Shown: positions 808 through 63,929 of the stretch, piece after piece
How positions within the stretch are numbered: the stretch's first letter is position 1
Layout of the letters: the number at the start of each line of letters is the position of its first letter
Source: Bacteroides helcogenes P 36-108
Lineage (GTDB): Bacteria; Bacteroidota; Bacteroidia; Bacteroidales; Bacteroidaceae
DNA: 64,000 nt
Direction of reading: 5' to 3'
Assembly (NCBI RefSeq): GCF_000186225.1
Contig: NC_014933.1
Location: 1,178,001-1,242,000, forward strand
Translations under genes and position numbers: made by a program
Notes under the pieces: model-generated
What the model was told of the DNA's origin: nothing
Databases searched by the model: none
What the model saw: only the letters and a program-made list of their open reading frames with translations

Positions 808-934
808 GCTTTTCGCATCAGGAAGAGGTAAGCCTTAAAGTTATGCGGTGTGCGGATATATATATATCCGTGTGCGGCGTACAAACGTCTGCAAGCCGTG
901 AACGGACTTTGCCTTATATGTCTGGTGCGATGGA

Positions 935-6794: not shown

Positions 6795-6898
6795 GGTATT
6801 GAAAGTGTAAAATAAGAGAGAGATATAAGGTGCTGAAATTCTTGAAAGAAAACTTCCAATTATTTACGATTTTTCTGGTGTGTTAGTTGGCATATTTA

Positions 6899-7564
6899 CT
6901 ATTCTATGAACTGCACTTTCTCTTTGATTCTTGGTTTGGCGGCAGGCGCTTCGTCAGGATAGCCGAAGGCGATGCAGTAAAGCAGGTTGTATCCTTCCGG
7001 GAAATCCAGCTTCTTCAGGTACTCTGCGGCTTCGGGTGTGTCGGTCATGAAGCGTGTGGGGCTTGCCAAGCAGCAAGAGCCGATGCCCATAGACCAGGCG
7101 GACAGCACCATGTTCTCGCCCAACAGTCCGCAGTCTATTTGCGAACAGTCATAAGAGGTGTCGTTGCCGATGAATACCACCGTGGGCGCATTGCGGAACA
7201 TGTTCCTGAAGCCGGGGGCTTCTGCCGCTTTCGGATTCTTTTGTTTGAACACCTCGCTCACTCCGTTCAAGAAATCAGGATTGTCCACCACACGCACGGC
7301 CCAAGATTGTTTGTTTTGTCCGTTGGGGGCATTGATGCCACATTCCAGAATGATTTGCATCGTGTCGCGGTTCACCGCTTGTGGTTTGTACTGGCGGATG
7401 CTGCGGCGCGTCATGATGGTTTCAATGACTGCATTCTTGCTGTCTGCCGTACAGTCGTCAGTTACCTTTTGGGCTGCCGGGGTGCAGGCGGTTGCCACAA
7501 AAATCGTGATGCCGATGAGGCTACATAGGCCGATGCCGCAGATGGTTTCTCTTAATGTTTTCAT
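6899..7564 (-). CDS. nitroreductase-family lipoprotein
   Basis: This 221-residue protein has a lipoprotein-type N-terminus (hydrophobic stretch ending VATACTP, likely lipid-attached Cys27). A nitroreductase fold follows: MTRRSIRQYKPQAVNRDTM for FMN binding, GINAPNGQNKQSWAV, and NMVLSAWSMGIGSCCLASPT. The family uses FMN and NAD(P)H to reduce quinones, nitro compounds or flavins. A membrane-anchored form outside the cytoplasm is unusual but recurs in Bacteroides; the natural substrate is unknown. A TATCTTTG box lies 24 bases upstream of the start. The M60 gene follows downstream. Confidence 0.9.
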   Translation of the reverse strand: MKTLRETICGIGLCSLIGITIFVATACTPAAQKVTDDCTADSKNAVIETIMTRRSIRQYKPQAVNRDTMQIILECGINAPNGQNKQSWAVRVVDNPDFLNGVSEVFKQKNPKAAEAPGFRNMFRNAPTVVFIGNDTSYDCSQIDCGLLGENMVLSAWSMGIGSCCLASPTRFMTDTPEAAEYLKKLDFPEGYNLLYCIAFGYPDEAPAAKPRIKEKVQFIE

Positions 7565-7587
7565 ACTTTTTCTTTTATGTTTCGTGG

Positions 7588-7595
7588 CAAAGATA
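7588..7595 (-). promoter_or_regulatory. nitroreductase promoter, -7 box
   Basis: TATCTTTG on the minus strand matches TAnnTTTG and lies 24 bases upstream of the ATG. It probably drives the nitroreductase and perhaps the M60 gene. Confidence 0.6.
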
Positions 7596-7740
7596 ATCTA
7601 TTTTTTTCTTAGATGTCTGATGTCCTAACTAAATCTATGTTAGGGACGGACGAAAATTGTGATCTTGCATACTCTATCATGAGGTAGGGACAAAGGCGGT
7701 CTGGACTGCTTACTAAAGAGTTCTTACCTATGCTTTAAAC

Positions 7741-7827
7741 TATATCTCCGCAGTGGAAATGTATATCTTGGTATTGGAGATTACAGTCTTAGATTTTGAG
7801 ATGTATATCTCGGTGGCCGAGATATAG
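7741..7827. repeat. three related TATATCT units, the last a perfect hairpin
   Basis: The 450-base gap between the nitroreductase and pckA has no supported gene. Inside it the motif TATATCT(C/T)(C/G)G recurs at 7741, 7762 and 7804. The third copy is a perfect inverted repeat, TATATCTCGG-TGG-CCGAGATATA (7804-7826). The second is a weaker version (TATATCTTGG...GGAGAT). The role is unknown; it may be a small dispersed intergenic repeat. Confidence 0.45.
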
Positions 7828-7961
7828 ATTATTCCATATATGAGCAGGCTTTTCTCTTAAGGGGTGGATGTATTGTACCGGGAGTGTGGGTGCTTCTTCC
7901 TTAATGGCTGATGGGGTGCGGTTGGATAGTGAGACTGTCATTGAATCTGCGTCCCTCCAAC

Positions 7962-7994
7962 AAAAAAAGCGGTTCCAAAGATTGGAACCGCTTT
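7962..7994 (-). terminator. pckA terminator
   Basis: A perfect 13-bp stem (AAAGCGGTTCCAA / TTGGAACCGCTTT, loop AGA) is followed on the minus strand by a T-run. It lies 23 bases past the pckA stop. Confidence 0.9.
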
Positions 7995-8016
7995 AAGAAT
8001 ATGTAAACTGGTTTTA

Positions 8017-9624
8017 TTAGAGTTTCGGACCGGCAGCAACCAAAGCTTTACCGGCTTCGTTGCCTGTGAACTTAGCGAAGTTCTTGATGAAGCGGGCAGC
8101 CAGGTCTTTGGCTTTTTCTTCCCACTTGCAAGCACAGTCATAAGTGTCGCGAGGATCAAGGATCTTCGGATCAACACCCGGCAATGCAGTCGGAACAACG
8201 AAATCGAAGTAAGGGATAACCTTAGTCGGAGCCTTGTCGATAGAACCGTCAAGGATAGCGTCGATGATGCCACGAGTGTCGCGGATAGAGATACGCTTGC
8301 CTGTACCGTTCCAGCCTGTATTTACCAAGTATGCCTTAGCACCAACCTTGTTCATCTTCTTAACCAATTCTTCTGCGTATTTAGTAGGATGCAAGCTCAA
8401 GAAAGCTGCACCGAAGCAAGCGGAGAATGTAGGAGTCGGTTCAGTGATACCACGTTCTGTACCTGCCAACTTAGCGGTGAAACCGGACAGGAAGTAATAC
8501 TGAGCCTGTTCGGGGTTCAGGATAGATACCGGAGGCAATACACCGAAGGCATCAGCAGACAGGAAGATTACTTGGTGTGCGTGAGGGCCTTTGGATACAG
8601 GCTTAACGATGTTCTCGATGTGGTAGATAGGATAAGAAACACGAGTGTTTTCTGTAACGCTCTTGTCTGCGAAGTCAATCTTGCCGTCGGCAGCAACCGT
8701 TACGTTCTCCAACAGGGCGTCACGCTTGATGGCAGCGTAGATATCGGGTTCGCTTTCTTTATCCAGATTGATAACCTTGGCATAGCAACCACCTTCATAG
8801 TTGAATACGCCTTCGTCATCCCATCCGTGCTCGTCATCACCGATCAACTTACGTTTCGGGTCGGTTGACAAGGTAGTCTTACCTGTACCGGACAGACCGA
8901 AGAAGATTGCAGAGTCAGTACCTTCCATGTTGGTATTGGCAGAACAGTGCATGGAAGCGATGCCGCGAAGAGGGTTCTTGTAGTTCATGATAGAGAACAT
9001 ACCTTTCTTCATTTCACCACCATACCAAGTGTTCAGGATAACTTGTTCGTTGGTCTTCAGGTTGAATACAGTAGCTGTCTCAGAGTTCAGACCCAGTTCC
9101 TTGTAGTTGTCAACTTTTGCTTTGGAAGCGTTGAATGATACGAAATCGGGTTCTCCGTAGTTGGCAAGTTCTTCGGCAGTCGGGCGGATGAACATGTTAG
9201 TTACGAAGTGAGCCTGCCATGCTACTTCCATGATGAAACGTACTTTCATACGAGTTCCTTCGTTAGCACCGCAGAAAGTATCTACAACAAACAGGCGTTT
9301 GCCGCTCAATTCCTTAACGGCTTTAGCCTTCAGGTCGGCCCAAGCTGCTTCAGAGCAAGGCTTGTTGTCATTCTTGTATTCTTCAGAAGTCCACCATACA
9401 GAGTCTTTGCTGGCTTCATTCATAACGAAGAATTTATCTTTAGGAGAACGTCCGGTGTAGATACCTGTCATTACGTTCACAGCACCCAGTTCAGTTACTT
9501 GACCTTTTTCGAAGCCTTCCAGACCCGGTTTGGTCTCTTCGGCGAACAATACATCATAAGACGGGTTGTGGAAAATTTCCTTCACGTCTTTGATACCGTA
9601 CTTGCTTAAATCTAAATTTGCCAT
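8017..9624 (-). CDS. pckA: phosphoenolpyruvate carboxykinase (ATP)
   Basis: This 535-residue enzyme interconverts oxaloacetate and PEP with ATP/ADP. In Bacteroides the reaction runs mainly toward oxaloacetate, fixing CO2 on the way to succinate. Visible family marks are GRSPKDKF, the kinase loop [11 protein letters not shown], the metal-binding [18 protein letters not shown], and [17 protein letters not shown]. The length is normal. The gene is monocistronic: a TACTTTTG box sits 127 bases upstream and a perfect hairpin terminator follows. It is divergent from upp. Confidence 0.97.
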
Positions 9625-9750
9625 TTCTTTTTAAGATTTTAAAATTGGTATTTGGTTTATAATCTCTTTACCTTAAATAAAGTGCAAGGGGAACATGGGA
9701 AGAAATCTCTTTTTTAGTTGCTTTGCAGTACGCCCCTTGTTTTTCGCCTA

Positions 9751-9758
9751 CAAAAGTA
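9751..9758 (-). promoter_or_regulatory. pckA promoter, -7 box
   Basis: TACTTTTG on the minus strand implies a leader of about 120 bases before pckA. That is long for this genome and could hold control elements, though none was recognised. The whole 9625-9937 gap (313 bases) holds only this promoter, the upp promoter and AT-rich DNA. Confidence 0.6.
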
Positions 9759-9850
9759 ATACTTTCTTTTTAAAGAAATACCCTATTAGAGAAATTTTTC
9801 TTTAATGAGAAGTCTTTTATAAAACCATAACAATATCTGTAACATGAATG

Positions 9851-9880
9851 TTGCAAATTGGATGAAAATCGCTTACTTTG
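9851..9880 (+). promoter_or_regulatory. upp promoter
   Basis: TTG at 9851-9853 lies 19 bases before TTACTTTG at 9873-9880. That box differs from TAnnTTTG at one place. Spacing to the upp ATG is 57 bases. Confidence 0.5.
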
Positions 9881-9937
9881 CAGCCGTTTTTATTCAAAAA
9901 AGAACGATTAAGGATATATTAACCCGATAACAAAATA

Positions 9938-10597
9938 ATGAAGATTATTAATTTAGCTGAGACAACTTCTGTCTTGAACCAGTATGTGGCCGAGATTCGT
10001 GATGTGGCAGTACAAGGCGACCGGATGCGTTTCCGCCGTAATATTGAACGCATCGGAGAGATGATGGCGTATGAAATGAGCAAAGGATTGACCTATTCCG
10101 TCAAGCAAGTGCGAACTCCGCTGGGGATAGCCTCGGTCAATACTCCTGATGATGACATTGTGATAGCAACCGTTTTCCGTGCCGGATTACCCCTGCATAC
10201 GGGTTTCCTGAACGTGTTCGACCGTGCCGGCAATGCTTTTGTGTCTGCCTACCGTTATTATAAGGACAAAGAATGCCGCACGGTAGATGTACATATTGAA
10301 TATATAGCTACTCCGGATCTATCGAGGAAAACTTTATTGCTGGTGGATCCGATGCTTGCCACGGGCGAAAGTATGGAACTTGCCTGGAAAGCATTCCTCA
10401 CCAAAGGTACACCTGCCAAGTTGCAGATTGCCTGTGTTATTGCCAGCCGGCAAGGGGTGGAGCACTTGGAAAAATTGTTCCCCGGCGATGATGTGACTTT
10501 GTGGTGTGCTGCCATTGATCCGGAGATGAACGAACATTCCTATATTGTTCCTGGTTTGGGGGATGCGGGCGATCTGGCGTATGGGGATAAGATTTAA
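9938..10597 (+). CDS. upp: uracil phosphoribosyltransferase
   Basis: This 219-residue cytoplasmic salvage enzyme makes UMP from uracil and PRPP. The PRPP-binding loop is LLLVDPMLATGESM. The flexible-loop region VFRAGLPLHTGFLNVF and the uracil-binding C-terminus (YIVPGLGDAGDLAYG) are present. The length is typical. The gene is a single unit, divergent from pckA, and ends 21 bases before the converging SGNH-like gene. Confidence 0.95.
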   Translation: MKIINLAETTSVLNQYVAEIRDVAVQGDRMRFRRNIERIGEMMAYEMSKGLTYSVKQVRTPLGIASVNTPDDDIVIATVFRAGLPLHTGFLNVFDRAGNAFVSAYRYYKDKECRTVDVHIEYIATPDLSRKTLLLVDPMLATGESMELAWKAFLTKGTPAKLQIACVIASRQGVEHLEKLFPGDDVTLWCAAIDPEMNEHSYIVPGLGDAGDLAYGDKI

Positions 10598-10618
10598 ACA
10601 GCAGGTATGAGGGGATGT

Positions 10619-11656
10619 CTATGCACCCCCTTTGTAAATCTTTTCCATAATCTGTGCTCCAAGTATCGGACGATAATGTTCCTTTTCATAATAATTGTGG
10701 ATGTCGCCTGTATATTCATTAATACCGGTGAAGTCAAATATATTTTCGGAACCGAAGACGCTTTTCAGGATTTTTATATCTTCAGGGCTTATGCTGATCT
10801 GATGAAAATCCGGGCTTATGATAATTTTGACTGAGGTATTGTGTTTCCGGCAGATGCTCTCTATCCTCTTCAGTAGGTGAAGTTGGCTGTCTTGGATAGC
10901 CGGTTTGGCTTCTTTGTATTTTCCGTCTCTGTAATCGTTCTCTTTTTTCTTCCGGAATTCTTCGTTGCGATTCTCCCAATATTTTTCTCCTTCTTTTTTT
11001 ATCATCCTTTCTCTCGGATTTATGGCATCATTGGTTACCGGATCTCTGATGATGCCATAAGGGTTTATTATTCCTTGCATATAGGGGCGATATGTATGAA
11101 ACAGCTTGTAGTCAAGATAGGGAAAGAATACATTCGGAAAGAAAAAAGCCTGGCAAAACCTCTTATGAAACTCGAAATGGCTCATTCCTGATATGTCGGG
11201 TGGAAGAATATTGCAGTATTCCGTCAAGAGCTGGTCGCGATGCAGAGATTCTTTATCCAGAATAAGGAGCAGGTTCTTGATATTTGCACCGTTCTTATCC
11301 AAAGCCTGTAACTTCATACTGATGGCTATCAGGCTCTCACCATTTCCGAATAAGCGTATGGCGCGTCCTCCCCTGAGATATTTTTCCCATTCGCGGCATT
11401 GATAAGCCATCGTGCAAGAATTTCCCATGATATAGGAATCGAAAGGTATGGAATCTCGGTTGTTCATGTATATCTGCCATCCGGTATATCCCTCGTTCAG
11501 CAGAAACGGAGAACTGTCATAACGATCATAATGTCTCAGTACCATGAAAGGGTCGGTTATGAAATATATCACCAATATGCTTATGAAAGGGATGCAAAGC
11601 AATAACAGCTTGCTTGAAAAGCGTATGGCTGCATTTCGTTCACTGTTTTTCTCCAT
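10619..11656 (-). CDS. DltD/AlgX-like SGNH-type membrane-anchored acyltransferase partner
   Basis: This 345-residue protein has one N-terminal membrane helix (about 14-34) and an extracytoplasmic domain. It carries GNS with Ser80 (YIMGNSCTMAY) and a C-terminal EKEHYRPILG block (Glu324, His327). These fit the nucleophile and the Asp/Glu-x-x-His of SGNH hydrolase-like proteins such as DltD. It is the last gene of the ligase-carrier-MBOAT-SGNH unit, 16 bases after the MBOAT gene. By analogy with DltD it would place an acyl group brought out by the MBOAT protein onto an outside acceptor. The acceptor is unknown, since Bacteroides has no teichoic acid. Overall similarity to known families is weak; the call leans on the two motifs and the neighbours. 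Confidence 0.65.
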   Translation of the reverse strand: MEKNSERNAAIRFSSKLLLLCIPFISILVIYFITDPFMVLRHYDRYDSSPFLLNEGYTGWQIYMNNRDSIPFDSYIMGNSCTMAYQCREWEKYLRGGRAIRLFGNGESLIAISMKLQALDKNGANIKNLLLILDKESLHRDQLLTEYCNILPPDISGMSHFEFHKRFCQAFFFPNVFFPYLDYKLFHTYRPYMQGIINPYGIIRDPVTNDAINPRERMIKKEGEKYWENRNEEFRKKKENDYRDGKYKEAKPAIQDSQLHLLKRIESICRKHNTSVKIIISPDFHQISISPEDIKILKSVFGSENIFDFTGINEYTGDIHNYYEKEHYRPILGAQIMEKIYKGGA

Positions 11657-11672
11657 AATGCGGATTTTGTTA

Positions 11673-13061
11673 TTAGAATTGTAAATAGATGAAACTGTCC
11701 GAACTGAATTGCCCTAATGTGAAGAATAAGATAGCCATTAGAAAATAGATACTCCATCTGACTGTTACAGATTGCTTTTCCAAGGCAGTCAGCAGATCTT
11801 TTTGGCCCATGAAGTACTCATAGGTCAGAATAAGTATGAGGGCGCTTCCTGCTACGATGCAATTATGATCCGGTATTCCTATATTTATCTCTTTCCAACT
11901 TTTGTGGACATTGAATGAGATGTTCCCTATATAATAGAGTGCGTCTGAGACAGAATCTGCTCGGAAGAAAATCAGGGAGAAAGCGAAAAGAAGATAGGTT
12001 CTCAGTACGGACAATGTGGAAAATAGCGGATTTCCTATCCACCTTCTTATCTTATTACGGAAAGGCGTGGTTTTCGTCTCATAAAAGATGATTATTCCCT
12101 GAATTAGTCCATAGATGATGAAAGTCCATCCAGCGCCGTGCCATGCCCCCAATGCGGCAAATGTCAATGTAAGGCTCAGAAAAACTCCCCATTGCCCCCA
12201 ATTGCGGAGGGTGGCAGATAGGGGGAGGTACAAGTAGTCTCTTACCCAGAATGAAAGAGACATGTGCCATCTCCTCCAAAAGTCAGCGGTAGTCTGTGCT
12301 ATGAACGGTCGGTCGAAGTTGGGACTGAGCCTAAAGCCCAGCATGCGGGCGCCCCCCAAAGCAATGTCGGTATATCCGGAAAAATCGGCATATAATTCTA
12401 TAGGATAAAGGAGGGCAGCCATCAGTAATTGTATTCCCGATGCTGTGTGTATGGAACTGAATATTTCATCTATGTAAGAGCCGATATAGTCTGCAAGTAT
12501 CAGTTTTTTGACTAACCCCACTGCTATCAGTTTCATACCATAAACCATGGACTCATAATCAGTCTCTTTCTTTGATTTAAGTTGTGGAAGCATGTCACCA
12601 GCCCTTTCGATAGGCCCTGACAGAAACTTCATGAAAAAGAGCATATATATCAGAAAATCGATTAGGCTGTTTTCCGGTTTTTCTTCTTGCCAATAGATTT
12701 CCGTCAGATAGGAGATGGCTTGAAAGGTGTAGAATGAAATACCTAAAGGAAACAAAAAGTGATGGTCGATAAGCTGACCGGCATATCGGAATGCCAGCCA
12801 GCTTACAACTAAAAAACACACACCTGAAAAATAAATACTTTTTGTTCTCTTTTCATCTTTAGTCAGATCTATCCATCTGCCGAGCAAGAAAGTGGCGAAT
12901 GAGATAAAAAGGGCTGTAAACAGGAAAACAATGTGATGGAACCCTATAAAAATAAAACTGGCAGCCAGCAGTATTGCTTTCTTGTATTTGGGTACAACCG
13001 TGTGGTACAGGATGAAAGTGAATGAGAATAGTAAGACAAAGTCCAGAGAAATGAATGACAT
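11673..13061 (-). CDS. MBOAT-family O-acyltransferase (DltB/AlgI-like)
   Basis: This 462-residue polytopic membrane protein has about eleven hydrophobic segments. MBOAT marks are present: DFWRRWHMSLSFWVRDYLY (His266) and the catalytic His308 in ALGAWHGAGWTF. MBOAT proteins such as DltB and AlgI pass an activated acyl group across the membrane for O-acylation. It lies four bases after the carrier-protein gene and 16 before the SGNH-like gene, so it is part of one operon. The donor is probably the phosphopantetheine-bound acyl group on that carrier, as in Dlt. What is transferred is inferred, not seen. Confidence 0.88.
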   Translation of the reverse strand: MSFISLDFVLLFSFTFILYHTVVPKYKKAILLAASFIFIGFHHIVFLFTALFISFATFLLGRWIDLTKDEKRTKSIYFSGVCFLVVSWLAFRYAGQLIDHHFLFPLGISFYTFQAISYLTEIYWQEEKPENSLIDFLIYMLFFMKFLSGPIERAGDMLPQLKSKKETDYESMVYGMKLIAVGLVKKLILADYIGSYIDEIFSSIHTASGIQLLMAALLYPIELYADFSGYTDIALGGARMLGFRLSPNFDRPFIAQTTADFWRRWHMSLSFWVRDYLYLPLSATLRNWGQWGVFLSLTLTFAALGAWHGAGWTFIIYGLIQGIIIFYETKTTPFRNKIRRWIGNPLFSTLSVLRTYLLFAFSLIFFRADSVSDALYYIGNISFNVHKSWKEINIGIPDHNCIVAGSALILILTYEYFMGQKDLLTALEKQSVTVRWSIYFLMAILFFTLGQFSSDSFIYLQF

Positions 13062-13065
13062 TGTG

Positions 13066-13311
13066 TTATTGAACTTTTATTGAGATTGAATTACATATAT
13101 CCCCTACATTTTTGAGCCGGACGATATCTCTGAAAGTAAAGCGTACATTGAATTGTTTCTCTATCTTGTTTATCAGTTGCATATTGGTCAAAGAATCCCA
13201 TCCTTCCACATCTTGGGCAGTAGTTTCATTGGTGAGTGAAATATCTTCCCTTTTTAAAACCTCCTGAAAAATCAAGTTTAGTTCATCTAAAATAATCTTC
13301 TGCATGTTCAT
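13066..13311 (-). CDS. acyl/aminoacyl carrier protein (DltC-like)
   Basis: This 81-residue small acidic protein has the phosphopantetheine attachment motif GWDSLTNMQL, with Ser40 as the attachment site. It lies six bases after the adenylating ligase gene and four before the MBOAT gene. By family it would hold the activated acyl or aminoacyl group as a thioester in the cytoplasm. The placement argues that it serves this pathway rather than fatty acid synthesis. No 4'-phosphopantetheinyl transferase gene is nearby; a housekeeping one would be needed. Confidence 0.85.
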   Translation of the reverse strand: MNMQKIILDELNLIFQEVLKREDISLTNETTAQDVEGWDSLTNMQLINKIEKQFNVRFTFRDIVRLKNVGDICNSISIKVQ

Positions 13312-13317
13312 ATAACT

Positions 13318-14811
13318 TTAAATTAATTCTTTTATCTTCTTTATATCTGTTTTGCTGTTGGTATTCAAAGGAAATTGTTCCAGGCAATGTATCTGTTTTG
13401 GAATCATATAGAAAGGTAATCTGCTGCTCATGTATTCCTCCAACTGTTGTTTGTTATAATGCACTCTTTCTATAATCAAATGCAGTTCGCAATGAGAATT
13501 TTCAGTATATTTTGGAATGACAACTGCTTTGCATTCACCTTTGAAGAAGTTTTTCACTACATGTTCTATCTCGCTCAGTTCGACGCGGAATCCTTGGATT
13601 TTTATTTGAGAATCTTTACGTCCGCAATAGATAATATCTCCATCGGAATCCATGCGGCAGAGATCGCCGGTTTTATAGTAGATTTTCCCATCGGCTGTTT
13701 CGACAAGAGATTCTTTGCTTTTTTGGGGAGAATTCCAGTAACTTTTCATCACTTGTTTGCCGCTGATCCATAGCTCTCCGGTTTCACCGGGAGAGAGAAG
13801 GTGCGAGTCATCACTCATAATCAGCGTGTTTACTCCATCAAAAGGCTTTCCGATGGCAATCATTCCATTGTGGTGCTTGCAGGAGACCATAGGTATTGGG
13901 TAGGCAGTACAATATATGGTTCCTTCCGTGGGACCGTATAAATTTACAAATGAGGCATTAGGGGCGCATTTTCGGAATGCTGACAGCAGTTCTACTTCTG
14001 ATGCCTCGGCGGTAACTACAAGATATTTAAGTTCGGGTAAATTTATTTCTGAGAAATAGGGGCGTAATAACCGGAGTAGTGAAGGTGCTACGGTTGCGAA
14101 GGTGAGGCTATACTTTTCCAAAACTTCGGCAACATTGATATATTTCACTCCATCCGGAGAGATGGTGTATATGCATGCTCCCAAAGTTAGCGGATATAGA
14201 TATGATACGATGGATACGTCGAAAGTAAGCTCGAACATTTGCAGCATTCGGTCATTTTCATTCAATATCCAGCCAAGACGACTGTATGCTGCATAGAAGG
14301 CATTCAGGTTACTGCGGGAAATAGGGACTCCTTTAGGCTCTCCTGTGCTGCCCGAAGTGAAGATGATGTATGCGTTTTCATTTTCTTCCGTATGGATATG
14401 CGGAAAGAAAGTGGGAGACGGCTGTGGCAAGTTTGAAGTACATATAAGTTCTACATCCCGAGTATCAAGATTCAGGATGTGTATATCTTCAGAGTATAGA
14501 ACCAGATGTATGTCAGCTACTTCAGCTATTTTCTTGTTTCTTTGTTTGGGATAGGCCGGATGCAGAATGACATAGGTTCTTCCGCTAATCAATACTGCCA
14601 GTATGGAGGCATACGTTTCCAGTTTGTTTTCTGCCACAATTCCTACGATTTTCTCTTTTTTGTCGTTTATCCGGGCAGCTATCCTGCAAACGGTTGCCGA
14701 CAATTGTTCGTAGGTGTAGGCGATATCGTCAATAACGAATGCATGCTTTGGGGCATACTTCCCAAAGGCTTTTGCAATGTCGTTTATCAAATCATTCTGA
14801 TTCTCTTTCAT
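13318..14811 (-). CDS. amino-acid-adenylation-type ligase (DltA-like)
   Basis: This 497-residue ANL-superfamily ligase has motifs in order: FTSGSTGEPKG (151-161, P-loop), FDVS (197-200), NLYGPTEG (290-297), KTGD (380-383), GRKDSQIKIQGFRVELSEIE (397-416) and the C-terminal lysine region NSKTD (Lys487). Asp198 is the residue that binds the alpha-amino group in adenylation domains, which favours an amino acid over a fatty acid; which amino acid cannot be read from the sequence. It is the first gene of the four-gene unit, six bases before the carrier gene. The order A-C-B-D differs from Gram-positive dltA-B-C-D. No convincing -7 box was found; CACTTTTG near 14949-14956 is the best near-match. Confidence 0.85.
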   Translation of the reverse strand: MKENQNDLINDIAKAFGKYAPKHAFVIDDIAYTYEQLSATVCRIAARINDKKEKIVGIVAENKLETYASILAVLISGRTYVILHPAYPKQRNKKIAEVADIHLVLYSEDIHILNLDTRDVELICTSNLPQPSPTFFPHIHTEENENAYIIFTSGSTGEPKGVPISRSNLNAFYAAYSRLGWILNENDRMLQMFELTFDVSIVSYLYPLTLGACIYTISPDGVKYINVAEVLEKYSLTFATVAPSLLRLLRPYFSEINLPELKYLVVTAEASEVELLSAFRKCAPNASFVNLYGPTEGTIYCTAYPIPMVSCKHHNGMIAIGKPFDGVNTLIMSDDSHLLSPGETGELWISGKQVMKSYWNSPQKSKESLVETADGKIYYKTGDLCRMDSDGDIIYCGRKDSQIKIQGFRVELSEIEHVVKNFFKGECKAVVIPKYTENSHCELHLIIERVHYNKQQLEEYMSSRLPFYMIPKQIHCLEQFPLNTNSKTDIKKIKELI

Positions 14812-56319: not shown

Positions 56320-57849
56320 ATGAAAAAACGGAATCTTTTTTTTCTGAGTAGCGGACTTCTTTTTTCTTCGTTGGGAGCCTACGCACAGAAAGCATCCAAA
56401 CCCAATATCATCTACATTATGTGCGATGACATGGGGTATGGTGACTTGGGTTGCTATGGGCAGCCTTATATCAATACACCCAACATTGATAAAATGGCTG
56501 ACGAAGGCATGCGTTTTACTCAGGCTTATGCCGGAAGTCCGGTGAGCGCACCTTCACGTGCTTCATTCATGACCGGGCAGCATTCCGGGCATTGTGAAGT
56601 GCGCGGTAATAAGGAATACTGGCGTAATGCCCCTGCCGTGATGTATGGAGATAACAGGGAATATGCTGTGGTGGGGCAGCATCCGTATGATCCGGATCAT
56701 GTAATCATACCTGAAATAATGAAAGATAATGGGTATGTAACCGGTATGTTCGGCAAATGGGCAGGTGGCTATGAGGGCTCTGTCTCTACACCGGATAAGC
56801 GTGGAATTGATGAGTATTACGGCTATATCTGCCAGTTTCAGGCGCATCTTTATTATCCGAACTTCCTGAACCGTTATAGCAAGTCTTTGGGTGATACGGC
56901 AGTGGTCCGTGTCGTGATGGATGAGAATATAAAGTATCCGATGTTTGGCAAGGATTATTTTAAACGTCCGCAATATTCTGCGGATATGATTCATAAAGAG
57001 GCGATGAAATGGCTGGATTCACAGAATGCACAACAACCTTTCTTCGGTATTTTTACCTATACACTTCCTCATGCCGAATTGGCACAGCCTGAAGATTCCA
57101 TATTGTTGGGTTATGAGAAAAAGTTCTTTACAGACAGAACTTGGGGCGGACAGGAAGGCTCACGTTATAATCCTTCTATCCATACCCATGCCCAGTTTGC
57201 TGGGATGATTACCCGTTTGGACCATTACGTCGGTGAAGTGCTGAAGAAACTGAAGGACAAAGGATTGGATGAGAACACTATTGTGATTTTTACCAGTGAC
57301 AACGGCCCTCATGAAGAAGGAGGGGCAGATCCAGCCTTTTTCGGCCGTGATGGAAAACTCCGGGGATTGAAACGCCAATGCTATGAGGGTGGCATCCGCG
57401 TTCCTTTTATAGTCCGCTGGCCGGGTAAAGTAGCGGCAGGGGCAGTGAATGACCATCAATGTGCATTTTATGACCTAATGCCTACTTTTTGTGATATTGC
57501 AGGTATAAAGAATTATACCAAGCGGTATGCCAATAAAAAGAAAAAGGAAATAGATTATTTTGACGGAATATCTTTTGCTCCGACTTTGTTAGGGCGGGAA
57601 GCACAGAAAGCACATGATTTCCTATATTGGGAATTTGATGAAACCGATCAGATCGGTGTCCGCATGGGTGACTGGAAGATGGTGGTAAAGAAGGGAAAAC
57701 CATTTCTGTATAATCTTGCTACGGATATACACGAGGATTATGATGTGGCTGCCGAACATCCTGATATAGTGAAACGGATGAAAGAAATAATCAGAATGCA
57801 GCATACTCCGAATTCTAATTTTTCAGTGACTCTGCCATCTTGGGATTAG
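56320..57849 (+). CDS. arylsulfatase-like S1-family sulfatase (Ser type)
   Basis: This 509-residue secreted protein has a signal peptide cut near AYAQ (residue 23). The S1 fold starts NIIYIMCDDMGYGDLGCYG, where Asp36 and Asp37 bind calcium. The modified residue is Ser76 in VSAPSRASFMTG, the S-x-P-S-R form that an anaerobic sulfatase maturase (anSME) turns into formylglycine; no maturase gene is in the window. FTSDNGPHEEG supplies further metal ligands. It probably removes sulfate from host or plant glycans in the periplasm; the exact substrate is open. It stands alone, not inside a polysaccharide utilisation locus. Confidence 0.93.
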   Translation: MKKRNLFFLSSGLLFSSLGAYAQKASKPNIIYIMCDDMGYGDLGCYGQPYINTPNIDKMADEGMRFTQAYAGSPVSAPSRASFMTGQHSGHCEVRGNKEYWRNAPAVMYGDNREYAVVGQHPYDPDHVIIPEIMKDNGYVTGMFGKWAGGYEGSVSTPDKRGIDEYYGYICQFQAHLYYPNFLNRYSKSLGDTAVVRVVMDENIKYPMFGKDYFKRPQYSADMIHKEAMKWLDSQNAQQPFFGIFTYTLPHAELAQPEDSILLGYEKKFFTDRTWGGQEGSRYNPSIHTHAQFAGMITRLDHYVGEVLKKLKDKGLDENTIVIFTSDNGPHEEGGADPAFFGRDGKLRGLKRQCYEGGIRVPFIVRWPGKVAAGAVNDHQCAFYDLMPTFCDIAGIKNYTKRYANKKKKEIDYFDGISFAPTLLGREAQKAHDFLYWEFDETDQIGVRMGDWKMVVKKGKPFLYNLATDIHEDYDVAAEHPDIVKRMKEIIRMQHTPNSNFSVTLPSWD

Positions 57850-59489: not shown

Positions 59490-59675
59490 TCAAATATATT
59501 TTTCCCATAGATAACGGAGTGGGCTGAGTAATCTCTCCGTTACACTCCGTTCGTCTGTCATCACCTCTGCCGTTCCGGATAGTTCCCCTTTGAAATCCAA
59601 CGTTTTGCCATACGAAGTGCACAAGTCCTGTGGAAGTTTTACGGTGATGGTATAAAATCCGGATATTCCTTTGAC
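59490..59675 (-). pseudogene. relic of a HlyD-family secretion protein (C-terminal 61 codons)
   Basis: Minus-strand translation gives FYTITVKLPQDLCTSYGK, then TLDFKGELSGTAEVMTDERS and VTERLLSPLRYLWEKYI before a stop. This is the usual C-terminus of Bacteroidetes HlyD-family adaptors that work with peptide-exporting ABC transporters (pattern YGK.L.FK..M.G.A.I.T...LLERL...LR). The frame stays open a little further back without clear homology and then meets a stop near 59750. No start codon, coiled coil or barrel-sandwich region is left. It lies downstream of the TlpA-like gene, in the same direction as the peptide locus. The rest of the 59333-59788 gap holds only the pepP terminator. Confidence 0.6.
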
Positions 59676-59788
59676 ATTACATATAATGCAGTAGAATATT
59701 TGCAGCCATAATATTTTGTGATAATCTTCAAAATGGTTCTTGCATTATCTTTTATTATTTTCTGATGTGCATTCATTCTGTTGCTTTA

Positions 59789-61267
59789 CTATTTTAAATA
59801 TTTGTCTATCGTTGTTGTCACTTGTTGGTCGCTCGGTCTTGGAGCATTCATTTCAACAATATTGCCCCGTTTATCGAAAATGATGTATCGGGGAATTAAT
59901 CCCAACTTTAGCTTTTCCAGTATTTTGCTATTCTTTGAATTGGTGATGAAGAAATTGTTGGGCACTTCTGATAAGCCCTCTTGCTCTACCGCCTTCTTCC
60001 AACTGCTTTCCTTGTCGTTGAGGGCCAGATAGACGAATACCACATTTTTTCCCTTGTACAATTCTCTCAACTTTGCCGAGGGAGGCATTTCTTCCCGGCA
60101 GGGCACACACCAGCTTGCCCAAAAGTCCACATAAATGACTTTTCCTCTGTTTTTTTTCAACAATATGTTTAGGTTGGTAGGCTTTCCGTGAATGTCCTTC
60201 AGCAATAGCTGGCTGGCGTCGGCAGACAAGTTGTATTGGTCTCTTATTTTGTTGAGTAGTAGTGTGTCTTGAGTGATATGGATATATTTATCAAGATAGC
60301 TGTTTACATCTTGTGCCGAAAAGTTTTCGCCGATTTCTTTGATGCAGCGTTCAAGCAAGATTTGTTTGGATTTTGGCTGAAATGGTTTCGGAGATAATTC
60401 ATCGAAGGTTTGACGCCAATCCTTGCTTCCTCCTTGGGATTTGCGTATTGTCGGAATATGCTGATTGAAAAACCAAAGGTAGTAGTCCAGAAATTCACGG
60501 TAGGAGGGATAACGGATATATTTGTCGGATATTTCGGGTTCCATCTGGCGATAGAAGGTGGTGTCTTCATTCAACATCCGCCGGGATTCATAGTCTTTCA
60601 GAGCAAGTAGGTATTGATAGTGATTGTATATCTTGTCCGAGATGATTTGCTGTTGTTTAAAGAGGTTGATGGTGTCCGTATAGGCTGTTTTATAGCTGCT
60701 GAACATGGATTGCAATGAGTCCAAAGGGCAATAGTTCATTAATAATGAAGTCCAGTTGTTGGCTCGTATCACGTCTATGTTTTGGGCAATCCGTACCCAG
60801 TCGCTTCCCAAACATGTTTTTGCTTCTAAGCCGGAGTGTGTCCTCCCTTTGCGCAATTCATAGTTCATATTATAGATTCTGTTGCGTTCCGGGTGATGTT
60901 TGCTGCTTAAAATAGGGTAGTCGAGGTTGTCCATAGAGATGGTAATAGTATCCCCTTGCATTAAAGGATAATAGATAAATTCAAAATCTCTATAATTCAG
61001 GGCTAATTCCTTGAAATGCTCGGGTGATTGTAAGATTATAGTATCGAAATCTGCTTCCGGCATATATTCCCTAAGTACTTCTGTATTGTCGGTATAGAGA
61101 ACTTTAGGCATGGGTATGTGTTTTGACCCTCCGGGAGTTTTGTATGGTTTAGGCTGGTAGTGGTCGAAACATACTACAATCTGTTCTTCACATTCTTTAT
61201 TGATGGATTGGCTCTGCTGGCAAGAATAGAGAAATATCGTCAGAAAGAAAATGGTATATCTAATCAT
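59789..61267 (-). CDS. TlpA-like thioredoxin-fold lipoprotein
   Basis: This 492-residue protein has a lipoprotein signal (FLYSC, Cys16). A long N-terminal region (about 20-350), mostly helical from 125 on, has no family I recognise. The C-terminal thioredoxin domain has DFWASWCVPCREEMP with the redox pair Cys387/Cys390, and a cis-proline loop LGLIPRYIIFDKRG. Such TlpA-type proteins reduce or exchange disulfides in the periplasm. It lies 124 bases after the six-cysteine peptide gene in the same direction, so handling of that peptide's disulfides is a natural guess. It may instead act in resistance or general thiol repair. Confidence 0.88.
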   Translation of the reverse strand: MIRYTIFFLTIFLYSCQQSQSINKECEEQIVVCFDHYQPKPYKTPGGSKHIPMPKVLYTDNTEVLREYMPEADFDTIILQSPEHFKELALNYRDFEFIYYPLMQGDTITISMDNLDYPILSSKHHPERNRIYNMNYELRKGRTHSGLEAKTCLGSDWVRIAQNIDVIRANNWTSLLMNYCPLDSLQSMFSSYKTAYTDTINLFKQQQIISDKIYNHYQYLLALKDYESRRMLNEDTTFYRQMEPEISDKYIRYPSYREFLDYYLWFFNQHIPTIRKSQGGSKDWRQTFDELSPKPFQPKSKQILLERCIKEIGENFSAQDVNSYLDKYIHITQDTLLLNKIRDQYNLSADASQLLLKDIHGKPTNLNILLKKNRGKVIYVDFWASWCVPCREEMPPSAKLRELYKGKNVVFVYLALNDKESSWKKAVEQEGLSEVPNNFFITNSKNSKILEKLKLGLIPRYIIFDKRGNIVEMNAPRPSDQQVTTTIDKYLK

Positions 61268-61391
61268 AACGAATAGGTTTGTATTTTAGGGAATAAAGAT
61301 GAATCAATGTGAATGACTGTTTTCAACCAAACAACGATGAGCAGGAGAACTGCCTCTTGAACAAATTCTCCTACTCCAGTTGTGAAGCTCG

Positions 61392-61592
61392 TTACCCACA
61401 ATAGCTGCTTGAAGCACAGCTATCACAGCACCAATTTCCTTCCGAGGTAGCCATGAATTGGGCCTGAATTTTGCTTACGTTACATTCTACGGTACCGCTT
61501 GGTGATTTGTAACCGCAAGTACCAGAACCACCTTTGATTGCTCTCATCTGAGTCTTGCTGAGAGCTTTTGATTTTAAATCATTGAAATTCAT
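61392..61592 (-). CDS. double-glycine-leader, six-cysteine secreted peptide precursor
   Basis: This is a 66-residue peptide. Residues 1-22 look like a Bacteroidales GG leader (LKSKALSKTQMRAIKGG), as in natural-product precursors cut by C39-type peptidases during ABC export. The predicted core of 44 residues has six cysteines: Cys26, 37, 55, 56, 59 and 65 (GNWCCDSCASSSYCG at the end). An even Cys count fits three disulfides; no radical SAM or lanthionine enzyme gene is visible. A weak -7 box (TAACTCTG, 61607-61614, minus strand) may drive it. It lies between the DUF3244 gene and the TlpA-like gene. Function is not known; bacteriocin, signal or structural peptide are all possible. Confidence 0.75.
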   Translation of the reverse strand: MNFNDLKSKALSKTQMRAIKGGSGTCGYKSPSGTVECNVSKIQAQFMATSEGNWCCDSCASSSYCG

Positions 61593-61667
61593 TTCTTTTG
61601 AATTTACAGAGTTAGTTCTACTCTATTAAAGCTTTTCGATTCCGCTTATATTTTAGCACACAAAATA

Positions 61668-62093
61668 TCATAAGTTAAAATTTCCTTCTAAACAAGTATT
61701 GTCCGCCTCTATCTCAATGAGATAGTTACCTGAGCTTTCGCCGTTCAGGTCTATACTGAGGGTAGCAGGATTGCTGTGTGTCTCTGAATTGACTGCTTCA
61801 CCGGTAGATTCATTGGTGATAGTGACACTGACAACTGCAATGCTTTCATTGAAGCTGATATCTACTACATCATTATAGAGATAAGCGTAGGCAGGCTGAA
61901 AAATGATGCTGCGTGGAGTCACGGGTCTATCTGGTTCTATATCATGTCCATGTTCTATGTGTCTCGTGTCATCTTTGGCCACAGTGAGTGTAATCTCTCC
62001 ATTGTTATTAGCAAGCTCTTTAGCGCTGGATGTTGTTGTACTCATTATTACAAGGAATACGGTTAAAATGCTCAGATACAAGATTCGTTTCAT
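61668..62093 (-). CDS. DUF3244-domain secreted protein
   Basis: This 141-residue protein has a signal peptide (MKRILYLSILTVFLVIMSTT, cut near SSAKE). A His/Asp-rich segment (HIEHGHDIEPDRP) precedes a small beta-sandwich, DUF3244 (AYLYNDVVDISFNESIAVVS, then SGNYLIEIEA). DUF3244 proteins occur widely in Bacteroidales beside TPR regulators and small peptides; none has a known role. The start at 62093 sits 25 bases after a TAACTTTG box; the longer frame from 62201 runs back through the promoter and operator region. Confidence 0.85.
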   Translation of the reverse strand: MKRILYLSILTVFLVIMSTTTSSAKELANNNGEITLTVAKDDTRHIEHGHDIEPDRPVTPRSIIFQPAYAYLYNDVVDISFNESIAVVSVTITNESTGEAVNSETHSNPATLSIDLNGESSGNYLIEIEADNTCLEGNFNL

Positions 62094-62117
62094 ACTTTTT
62101 TGTTTTTTTGTTTGTGA

Positions 62118-62150
62118 CAAAGTTAGCGTAATTCTCGTCTGTTGTGCAAA
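62118..62150 (-). promoter_or_regulatory. DUF3244/peptide locus promoter
   Basis: TTTG (minus strand, 62147-62150), 21 bases, then TAACTTTG (62118-62125). The leader is about 20-25 bases. Confidence 0.7.
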
Positions 62151-62155
62151 TAAAC

Positions 62156-62210
62156 CATGTCTCATTTTTGATGTGATTTGTCCCATTTCTACATGAGACA
62201 TGTCTCATGT
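62156..62210. promoter_or_regulatory. candidate operator: palindrome plus half-site
   Basis: ATGAGACATGTCTCAT at 62193-62208 is a perfect palindrome, extended to 20 bases at 62191-62210. Its half-site CATGTCTCAT recurs at 62156-62165, 43 bases away (about four helical turns), ending five bases upstream of the -33 element of the DUF3244 promoter. The palindrome overlaps the stop of the TPR regulator gene. The placement suits an activator that binds two sites. Confidence 0.6.
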
Positions 62211-63929
62211 ATCAGCAGAAGTAGTGCTTATTATGCTTCTTAGCAGTTTTTGTAATCCATTTGCCTGATAAGGGACATTCATCTTTTTGCAAATTCTCTG
62301 TTCAGTCCGGTAGAGGGTGGCGTGGGCAATTTTCAAGATTTGCATTTTTTCTTTGATAGAGAAGTCTGTAAATAGCAGATAGCAGTAATGGGTTTCGTTT
62401 TTACTGAATTTATGTTCAGCAGCCAGTTTTGAGAGAGTGCCTGTTTTCTCTGTTTCTGCCATAAATCTAATCCATTCATCGTCTGTCAATGTCACCTTGG
62501 AGATTCCGTGCTCTTTGCAATCTGCAATGATTTGCTTCATTTTATTGTATACATCCGAATAATCCAACACCTTTCTTAGTAGCATAATGTGTTGTTTATT
62601 CAATTTATCCAGTTCCTCCTGCATTTGTTCCTTTTGGGCTTCGTCAATGTACTGCTGTGTTATTTTTTGTTGCAGGGCGGCTATTTGTTCCTCTTTCTGT
62701 TTCGTTTCTTCTTTCACAAAAAAGTATTGTCGGCGCAGTTCTTTTTCTTTTAAGAGAGCTTTTTGTTTTTGCAGATAGAGTTTCTTGAGATAACGTTTTC
62801 GCAATAGATAAATGCTTCCAAAGCCTATGAGTACTGAGATGAGAATGTAGTAGCGATATTCTTTTAGATAAGATTCGTACAATGTCCGTTGCTGCAACAT
62901 TTCTATGGTTCGTTCTGCCTCGTTGATTTCGGTTCTCTGCAGAAACAAGTTCGCGCTGTCTTTATAAGCAGAATGGAACTGTTCCAAATTGAGAGATAGG
63001 GAAGTGTCGCCTTTTGCTTTTGCTATATCGGCCAAGCGCATATAGGCTGCTTCTTTGGTGCTATAGCTTGGCGATGCAAAGCTTTTCTTTATATATATGG
63101 TGGCAGAGTCGTATTGTTTCGTTTGGTAATACGCATCTCCCAATTCCAAAAAGGTACGGTAACAGTGTGTCGTATCTTTTTGCAGCTTGAAGCTTTGCTT
63201 GGCATATTGTAGTGCTTTTGTACTCTCTCCGGTTCTGACATACAGTGTGCTCAGTGCAGAAAGGACATTTGCTTTAATAGCATCTTCTTTGATATTTATT
63301 AAAAGGGATTGTGCTTGTAGCAGTTCCTTTTTCGCTTGTGGATAATGCTTTTGGTAGAGTTGTATGTTCCCTTGCATGGTGAGGATTGTAATCCTCAGGA
63401 AAGTGTCTTCCAATTGGATACTGATTTGCTCGGCTTTCCGATAAACGGTATCTGCTTTTTCATAGAAATTTTGCAGGTAATAAATGTATCCCATATTGGC
63501 GTATATTTGTCCGAGCAACACTTTGTTTCCTGCTTTTTGTGCAAAAGGAATTGCACAGAGAAATTTATCTGTAGCTTTGGCTTGCTCATTTCTGTCTCTG
63601 CAAACGCTGCCCCAATAATAATAGGCTTTCGCTTGCATTTTACTTTCTTTTATGGAGTTATAATAGCGCACGGCTGTTTGTATCAGCGAGTCATCAGTCT
63701 GCACTATGTAGTTTTTGTCCCGTGCCTGCGTCAACAGCAGCGCATAGTAGGCGCGGTCGGCTTCTGTCTTCAATCTGTTTGCTGGGATGTCTTGCAGCAG
63801 GTGCAGTGCACTGTCCGGGCATTCTTGCATCAGCGAGTCAGCTTGTGCCAGCAGATTTCCACTGTTCCTGCTGGTGCAGGCAGATAGGAATAGGACCAGC
63901 AGGGATATGAGTAAAGCAGTATTTCTCAT
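62205..63929 (-). CDS. membrane-anchored TPR transcriptional regulator
   Basis: This 574-residue protein has a lipoprotein-like start (LFLSAC, Cys18). TPR repeats span about 25-345 (such as GQIYANMGYIYYLQNFYEKA), followed by one membrane helix (360-377) and a coiled coil (about 380-455). The cytoplasmic C-terminal domain (about 475-574) contains a helix-turn-helix-like segment (KEKMQILKIAHATLYRTEQR). Bacteroides uses many such proteins to sense outside the inner membrane and bind DNA inside. It stands directly upstream of the DUF3244 gene and peptide and is the likely regulator of that locus. A TATCTTTG box lies 23 bases upstream. Confidence 0.85.
   Translation of the reverse strand: MRNTALLISLLVLFLSACTSRNSGNLLAQADSLMQECPDSALHLLQDIPANRLKTEADRAYYALLLTQARDKNYIVQTDDSLIQTAVRYYNSIKESKMQAKAYYYWGSVCRDRNEQAKATDKFLCAIPFAQKAGNKVLLGQIYANMGYIYYLQNFYEKADTVYRKAEQISIQLEDTFLRITILTMQGNIQLYQKHYPQAKKELLQAQSLLINIKEDAIKANVLSALSTLYVRTGESTKALQYAKQSFKLQKDTTHCYRTFLELGDAYYQTKQYDSATIYIKKSFASPSYSTKEAAYMRLADIAKAKGDTSLSLNLEQFHSAYKDSANLFLQRTEINEAERTIEMLQQRTLYESYLKEYRYYILISVLIGFGSIYLLRKRYLKKLYLQKQKALLKEKELRRQYFFVKEETKQKEEQIAALQQKITQQYIDEAQKEQMQEELDKLNKQHIMLLRKVLDYSDVYNKMKQIIADCKEHGISKVTLTDDEWIRFMAETEKTGTLSKLAAEHKFSKNETHYCYLLFTDFSIKEKMQILKIAHATLYRTEQRICKKMNVPYQANGLQKLLRSIISTTSADT

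What the first reader, a model, noticed from the sequence alone, without database searches (positions are those of the whole stretch)
59490..63929. Small secreted-peptide locus: membrane TPR regulator, DUF3244 protein, GG-leader six-Cys peptide and TlpA-like protein
Seen: four minus-strand genes in a row, with a 66-residue peptide whose leader ends KGG and whose core has six cysteines, next to a thioredoxin-fold lipoprotein. Known: GG leaders of this sort are cut by C39-type peptidases on export, and Bacteroidales make peptides of this sort, some antibacterial. Inference: the locus makes a disulfide-rich secreted peptide, the TlpA-like protein handles its disulfides, and the TPR protein senses the cue. 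The DUF3244 protein may be a partner or immunity factor. I know of no described function for this exact set.
Basis: partly seen in the sequence, partly recalled or inferred. Interest (0 to 1): 0.75.

Follow-up and report, generated by a model that had tools for sequence, protein, structure and literature searches.

The report
Secreted-peptide gene cluster missing its exporter
A gut bacterium keeps the gene for a small cysteine-rich peptide and that gene's neighbours, but a deletion has removed the machinery that relatives keep beside it, apparently to cut, export and cross-link the peptide.

Summary
The four genes are real. The window's genome matches Bacteroides helcogenes P 36-108 in length (3,998,906 bp, finished). 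The 66-residue peptide belongs to a conserved family: 52 database relatives, six cysteines invariant in 18 chosen rows. Here the first 41 codons of the oxidase gene are fused to the last ~54 of the adaptor gene, about 4.8 kb less than in B. rodentium. No C39 peptidase or VKOR domain was found in the genome; a second exporter locus is in pieces. So C39 export is supported for the family, not for this strain. The locus is a mosaic: 1 kb is 96-100% identical to B. rodentium where flanks are 80%. The six-Cys core also occurs behind an unrelated NVEALA leader. Best reading: a disulfide-peptide export operon that has lost its exporter. What the peptide does is untested; bacteriocin-like is my guess.

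The parts
62205..63929 (-). TPR protein: lipobox Cys18, TPR superhelix, one membrane-spanning stretch near 358-378 (by eye), long helix, C-terminal helical domain; probable membrane-bound transcription regulator
   Evidence: Cys18 invariant in 51 rows; model pLDDT 86.8; TPR fold matches about 19-331; DNA-binding fold of the C-terminal part inconclusive
62192..62209 (.). perfect 18-bp palindrome CATGAGACATGTCTCATG, candidate operator; overlaps the TPR stop codon
   Evidence: one of two perfect 18-bp palindromes in the window; 12-bp centre found at one place in the genome, reversed control 0
62157..62184 (-). further candidate half-sites GGGACA (62179-62184) and GAGACAT (62157-62163), spaced 22 and 21 bases from the palindrome's GAGACAT
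   Evidence: the exact-repeat test did not reach significance for this region
62118..62150 (-). promoter-like boxes: TTTG 62147-62150 and TAACTTTG 62118-62125 (Bacteroides consensus recalled)
61668..62093 (-). DUF3244 protein, 141 aa, N-terminal signal-like stretch (by eye)
   Evidence: PF11589 51.8 bits, cut-off 25
61392..61592 (-). 66-aa GG-leader precursor with six-Cys core
59789..61267 (-). TlpA-like lipoprotein, lipobox LYSC (by eye), WCVPC active site
   Evidence: Redoxin 61.1 bits
60603..61602 (-). recombinant tract, 96-100% identical to B. rodentium L004 in every 100-column block (flanks 80%)
59703..60602 (-). tract 84-97% identical to B. muris L006 per 100-column block (flanks 78.7%)
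59654..59776 (-). remnant: first 41 codons of the C39-like/VKOR gene
   Evidence: tblastn, DNA
59490..59654 (-). remnant: last ~54 codons of the HlyD-type adaptor gene; fused to the previous remnant at about 59654

Best explanation
The locus is what is left of a Bacteroides operon that makes and exports a small disulfide-bonded peptide. In intact relatives (gene content shown, function not) a membrane-bound TPR regulator precedes a promoter that drives DUF3244, the GG-leader six-Cys peptide, a TlpA lipoprotein, a C39-like/VKOR oxidase, a C39-peptidase ABC exporter and an HlyD-type adaptor. Inferred mechanism: the TPR protein switches the promoter through its own repeated site; the exporter cuts the leader after GG and moves the core out; VKOR and TlpA proteins form or sort its disulfides; the core acts outside the cell, most likely as a bacteriocin-like peptide. 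In this strain a deletion removed most of the oxidase gene, the exporter and most of the adaptor gene, and no other C39 or VKOR domain was found, so the peptide, if made, should stay unprocessed in the cytoplasm. The rest is either decaying or kept for a job other than secretion.
For: Operon with full-length exporter and adaptor in L005, L026, L027, L028 (L028 adaptor by tblastn only) and, with the exporter split by frameshifts in a draft assembly, L004. In the window the two ends of the missing block are fused in order, at the same chromosomal site as in B. rodentium: xaaP and rpoN on one side, kinase genes on the other. The genome paper calls the assembly finished (passages). Own genome: 0 PF03412 at 1e-3, 0 PF07884 at 0.01; exporter matches are pieces at L025 and matches confined to the ABC part elsewhere; adaptor matches only here and at L025. 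Bacteroidetocin loci pair a GG Cys peptide with a thiol oxidoreductase and a C39-type exporter; deleting the thiol gene attenuates activity, and the authors state that Bacteroides lacks the general disulfide machinery (PMC6671954, passages).
Against: The four remaining genes are intact frames, and TlpA shows no relaxed selection: window-derived changes 8 nonsynonymous to 14 synonymous against 41 to 76 in L005 (p = 1.0) and 24 to 31 in L006 (p = 0.62). So the deletion is recent or TlpA still works. Export by a non-C39 route is not excluded. The bacteriocin role rests on analogy. The strain name rests on genome length alone.
Confidence: 0.75

Rival explanations
1. Selected exporter loss: the strain keeps regulator, DUF3244 and TlpA to resist or respond to neighbours' peptide while no longer secreting its own, a non-producer of the kind discussed for BlpAB-minus pneumococci.
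For: Frames intact, TlpA not relaxed. In B. muris L006 exporter and adaptor are also broken, by other deletions, while TPR, DUF3244, peptide, TlpA and oxidase are intact. The peptide part was exchanged recently. In pneumococcus BlpAB loss is a maintained polymorphism (PMC12150690, passages).
Against: No immunity gene is identified. B. muris has 9 C39 matches, 2 of them in this locus (G087), so 7 elsewhere could serve in trans. BlpAB-minus pneumococci still export through ComAB; no such stand-in was found here. One strain only.
Confidence: 0.2
2. Still functional in trans: another peptidase and exporter of this genome mature the peptide.
For: Intact frames and constrained TlpA; many ABC proteins in the genome (36 matches).
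Against: No C39 domain, no adaptor of this family except remnants, no VKOR.
Confidence: 0.12
3. A radical-SAM-modified RiPP, as the TIGR04149 model name says.
For: Leader passes the TIGR04149 cut-off.
Against: No radical-SAM domain in the 20 neighbouring or locus proteins scanned from L005, L006, L026, L027, L028 and the window nor in the operon proteins; VKOR and thioredoxin-fold genes instead. L004 flanks were not scanned.
Confidence: 0.05
4. The deletion is an assembly error.
For: Not checked against reads.
Against: Finished genome, 56.3x Illumina plus 36.7x 454 (PMC3072090, passages); a second, independent exporter locus is broken as well.
Confidence: 0.04

Closest known systems
Bacteroidetocins (class IIf; Coyne et al. 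2019, PMC6671954, passages read)
   Same: Bacteroidales GG-leader Cys peptide beside a thiol oxidoreductase, a C39-type ABC exporter and a multi-span membrane protein
   Different: Leader 15-16 aa against 22; four Cys in bacteroidetocins A and B against six; cores not aligned here; TPR, DUF3244, HlyD adaptor and C39-like/VKOR fusion not in the passages read; exporter absent in this strain
Bacteroidales PCAT/GG-motif RiPP clusters (Fernandez-Cantos et al. 2023, PMC10352776, abstract and section 3.2 read)
   Same: GG-motif precursors with C39 exporters and MFPs; TPR genes in two of nine clusters; two clusters lack a PCAT
   Different: 8 of those 9 clusters have a radical SAM enzyme and the ninth LanM; no VKOR or thioredoxin and no DUF3244 found by text search of the paper
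NVEALA peptides (Pfam PF14055)
   Same: L030 and relatives carry the same six-Cys core
   Different: Unrelated leader, beta-propeller neighbour, no exporter hit in the L030 stretch
Pneumococcal blp locus with broken BlpAB (PMC12150690, passages read)
   Same: GG-peptide locus whose own exporter is inactivated
   Different: There ComAB exports in trans; here no C39 exporter was found; frameshift there, multi-gene deletion here

Membership tests
C39/PCAT-exported GG peptide system | GG-type leader on a small precursor | tested here: met
   IKGG at 19-22; TIGR04149 32.4 bits, cut-off 25
C39/PCAT-exported GG peptide system | C39-peptidase ABC exporter in the locus or genome | tested here: not met
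   0 PF03412 in the genome; exporter pieces only. Met in L005, L026, L027, L028
C39/PCAT-exported GG peptide system | cleavage and export of the peptide | not testable with these tools
   needs mass spectrometry
Bacteroidetocin | anti-Bacteroidales killing | not testable with these tools
   needs spot assays
Bacteroidetocin | sequence relation to bacteroidetocins | not tested
   sequences not fetched; none of the 18 names seen for or 56 hits says bacteroidetocin, but few hits are named
TIGR04149 radical-SAM-modified RiPP | leader model score | tested here: met
TIGR04149 radical-SAM-modified RiPP | radical-SAM maturase near the precursor | tested here: not met
   none among the proteins scanned (not every flank frame was scanned)
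NVEALA peptide | PF14055 leader | tested here: not met
   no PF14055 hit at E up to 1; core shared, leader not
Membrane-bound TPR/HTH transcription regulator | TPR sensor domain | tested here: met
Membrane-bound TPR/HTH transcription regulator | C-terminal DNA-binding domain | tested here: inconclusive
   two LuxR-type HTH proteins at E 0.45, behind an unrelated actin-binding protein at 0.2; of 8 members one hits an HTH model at 0.0032, the window's none

The most novel reading that the evidence does not exclude
The six-Cys core is a movable cargo domain that Bacteroidales send out by two unrelated routes: a GG/C39 exporter with its own oxidase, and an NVEALA leader with a beta-propeller partner. 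Its operons are reshuffled between species by recombination, each with its own TPR regulator and matching promoter repeat, and some lineages, B. helcogenes among them, have dropped the exporter while keeping the rest, living as non-producers that still sense or resist the peptide.
Probability: 0.25. Interest if true: 0.65.

Novelty: new variant of a known kind. Interest (0 to 1): 0.45.

Why it matters
It warns against reading secretion from a GG leader alone: this peptide gene looks ready for export but its exporter is gone. It points to a cargo family (one six-Cys core on two leaders) and to intact relatives (L005, L026, L027, L028) in which disulfide-peptide export by an anaerobe can be tested. 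Promoter repeats that differ with the regulator give a way to match TPR regulators to their targets.
Full report
What is there. Four minus-strand genes lie at 59789-63929 as described. Pfam and NCBIfam give TPR repeats, DUF3244 (51.8 bits, cut-off 25), a TIGR04149 GG leader (32.4 bits, cut-off 25) and a Redoxin/TlpA-type domain. The genome is one contig of 3,998,906 bases, exactly the length reported for the finished genome of Bacteroides helcogenes P 36-108T, one circular chromosome (PMC3072090, passages). The name rests on that match of length.

The peptide is real and conserved. A search of 5.8 billion proteins gave 52 relatives. In A2 (window plus 17 of the 52) all six Cys are invariant; in A1 (window plus 31 of the 52) 7 of 32 rows depart. 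dN/dS is 0.12 against L005 and 0.08 against L006. With the single sequence 1 of 61 genomes searched had it, the window's own; with the alignment 9 of 158 genus genomes did, the window's included.

The missing block. Named relatives B. rodentium (L004), a Bacteroides MAG (L005) and B. muris (L006), and unnamed L026, L027 and L028, show the operon beyond TlpA: a 531-534 aa protein with C39-like and VKOR domains (plus a thioredoxin match below its cut-off in L005), a 728-730 aa C39-ABC exporter and a 431-433 aa HlyD-type adaptor (the L028 adaptor by tblastn over residues 3-430 without stops). L005 has an extra TlpA-like gene between oxidase and exporter. In L004 the exporter is split by frameshifts, in a draft assembly. 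In the window the first 41 codons of the oxidase gene run into the last ~54 codons of the adaptor gene at about 59654, 4,827 bases less than L004 (coordinates). Judged from relatives the two ends share only TT. The site is the chromosomal one of B. rodentium, so this is a loss, not a partial gain.

No spare parts. The genome has no PF03412 match at 1e-3 and no VKOR match at 0.01. A full-length exporter query gives 36 matches: pieces at G000 1.071-1.078 Mb (L025), with a truncated adaptor beside them, and elsewhere matches confined to the ABC part. An adaptor query finds only L025 and the window remnant. So every C39-ABC sequence that I could recognise in this genome is in pieces. Lacking C39 is common in the genus (30 of 75 genomes at least 95% complete, the window's included); lacking it while keeping a GG peptide is the point here. 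Only one TIGR04149 match over cut-off exists in the genome, this one.

It happened more than once. In B. muris the exporter and adaptor carry three deletions and a frameshift; the first two breaks lie at short imperfect repeats (ATGCAGGAYG; TTYGACGAG). Of 7 GG-type loci long enough to judge (window, L004, L005, L006, L026, L027, L028), 2 have a deleted exporter. L029 ends inside TlpA and shows no TPR or DUF3244 upstream; L030 is of another kind. B. muris has 9 C39 matches, 2 in this locus, so 7 others could act in trans. The right-hand breaks in window and B. muris lie within about 10 bases of each other, judged by eye; I cannot explain this.

A mosaic locus. In 100-column blocks, window 61602 to 60603 is 96-100% identical to B. 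rodentium and 51-80% to B. muris; from about 60602 to 59703 it is 84-97% identical to B. muris and 70-83% to B. rodentium. Flanking genes are 80.0% (7,034 bases) and 78.7% (5,027 bases) identical respectively. Peptide dS between window and B. rodentium is 0.027. The TPR proteins are about 40% identical; apart from itself the window's TPR is closest to database proteins at 76-81%, one named B. fluxus. So at least three ancestries meet here.

Same core, second leader. The weakest of the nine genomes' best hits, L030, is a 101-aa protein with a Pfam NVEALA leader (44.4 bits, cut-off 27) and a core that aligns with the window's at all six Cys (as P0053; profile E 4.3e-11). A search from it gave 18 proteins; of the 10 that I read, 7 (P0053-P0059) carry this core, with NVEALA-like leaders by eye and the Pfam mark on 3 of the 7. 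The next gene in L030 is a 6-bladed beta-propeller. Four NVEALA peptides over cut-off exist in the window's genome, with other cores. No paper in the held library contains the word NVEALA.

What it does. By analogy with bacteroidetocins, whose thiol gene is needed for full activity (PMC6671954, passages), I think the intact operons export a disulfide-bonded, bacteriocin-like peptide. Gene content is shown; export, disulfides and killing are inferred. In B. helcogenes the peptide should not be matured. Whether the rest is decaying or kept for sensing or protection is open: TlpA shows no relaxed selection. The pneumococcal blp locus, where exporter loss is a maintained polymorphism (PMC12150690, passages), is the nearest parallel I found; there a second exporter remains.

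In print. Nothing I saw describes this gene set, this deletion or the shared core: passages of PMC3072090, PMC6671954, PMC10434189 and PMC12150690; abstract and section 3.2 of PMC10352776; otherwise listings. Two papers hold 'TIGR04149' and I saw only their listing. Subscription papers are not held, so this is no proof of absence.

Noticed in passing
L025 (G000:C1:1064000-1083000), 5813-13709: Second decayed peptide-export locus in the same genome: fragments of C39-ABC genes, truncated HlyD adaptor, intact TlpA-like gene, a gene with a weak PDZ match, and two similar lipoprotein genes, one with a sub-threshold beta-propeller match.
   Followed up: partly
L030 9869-10174: NVEALA-leader protein whose core is homologous to the window peptide's six-Cys core.
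   Followed up: partly
L033-L036 (own genome): Four NVEALA peptides over cut-off with diverse Cys-containing cores; in L033, L034 and L036 a lipoprotein gene follows that looks like a beta-propeller by eye.
   Followed up: no
L026 12535-16320 and L027 3147-6938: A second TPR-DUF3244 pair followed by a C39-like/VKOR protein directly upstream of the peptide operon: TPR-DUF3244 is a repeated module.
   Followed up: partly
window 59654; L006 about 15130: Right-hand deletion ends in the window and in B. muris lie within about 10 bases of each other in the adaptor gene; unexplained.
   Followed up: partly
L028 3710-3898 and 5909-6109: Two peptide genes in one operon; the first lacks two of the six Cys.
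   Followed up: no
window 56320-57849: Gene of a sulfatase-like protein (by eye) between rpoN and xaaP with no tblastn match in the 20-kb loci L004-L006.
   Followed up: no
window 853-870: The only other perfect 18-bp palindrome in the window.
   Followed up: no
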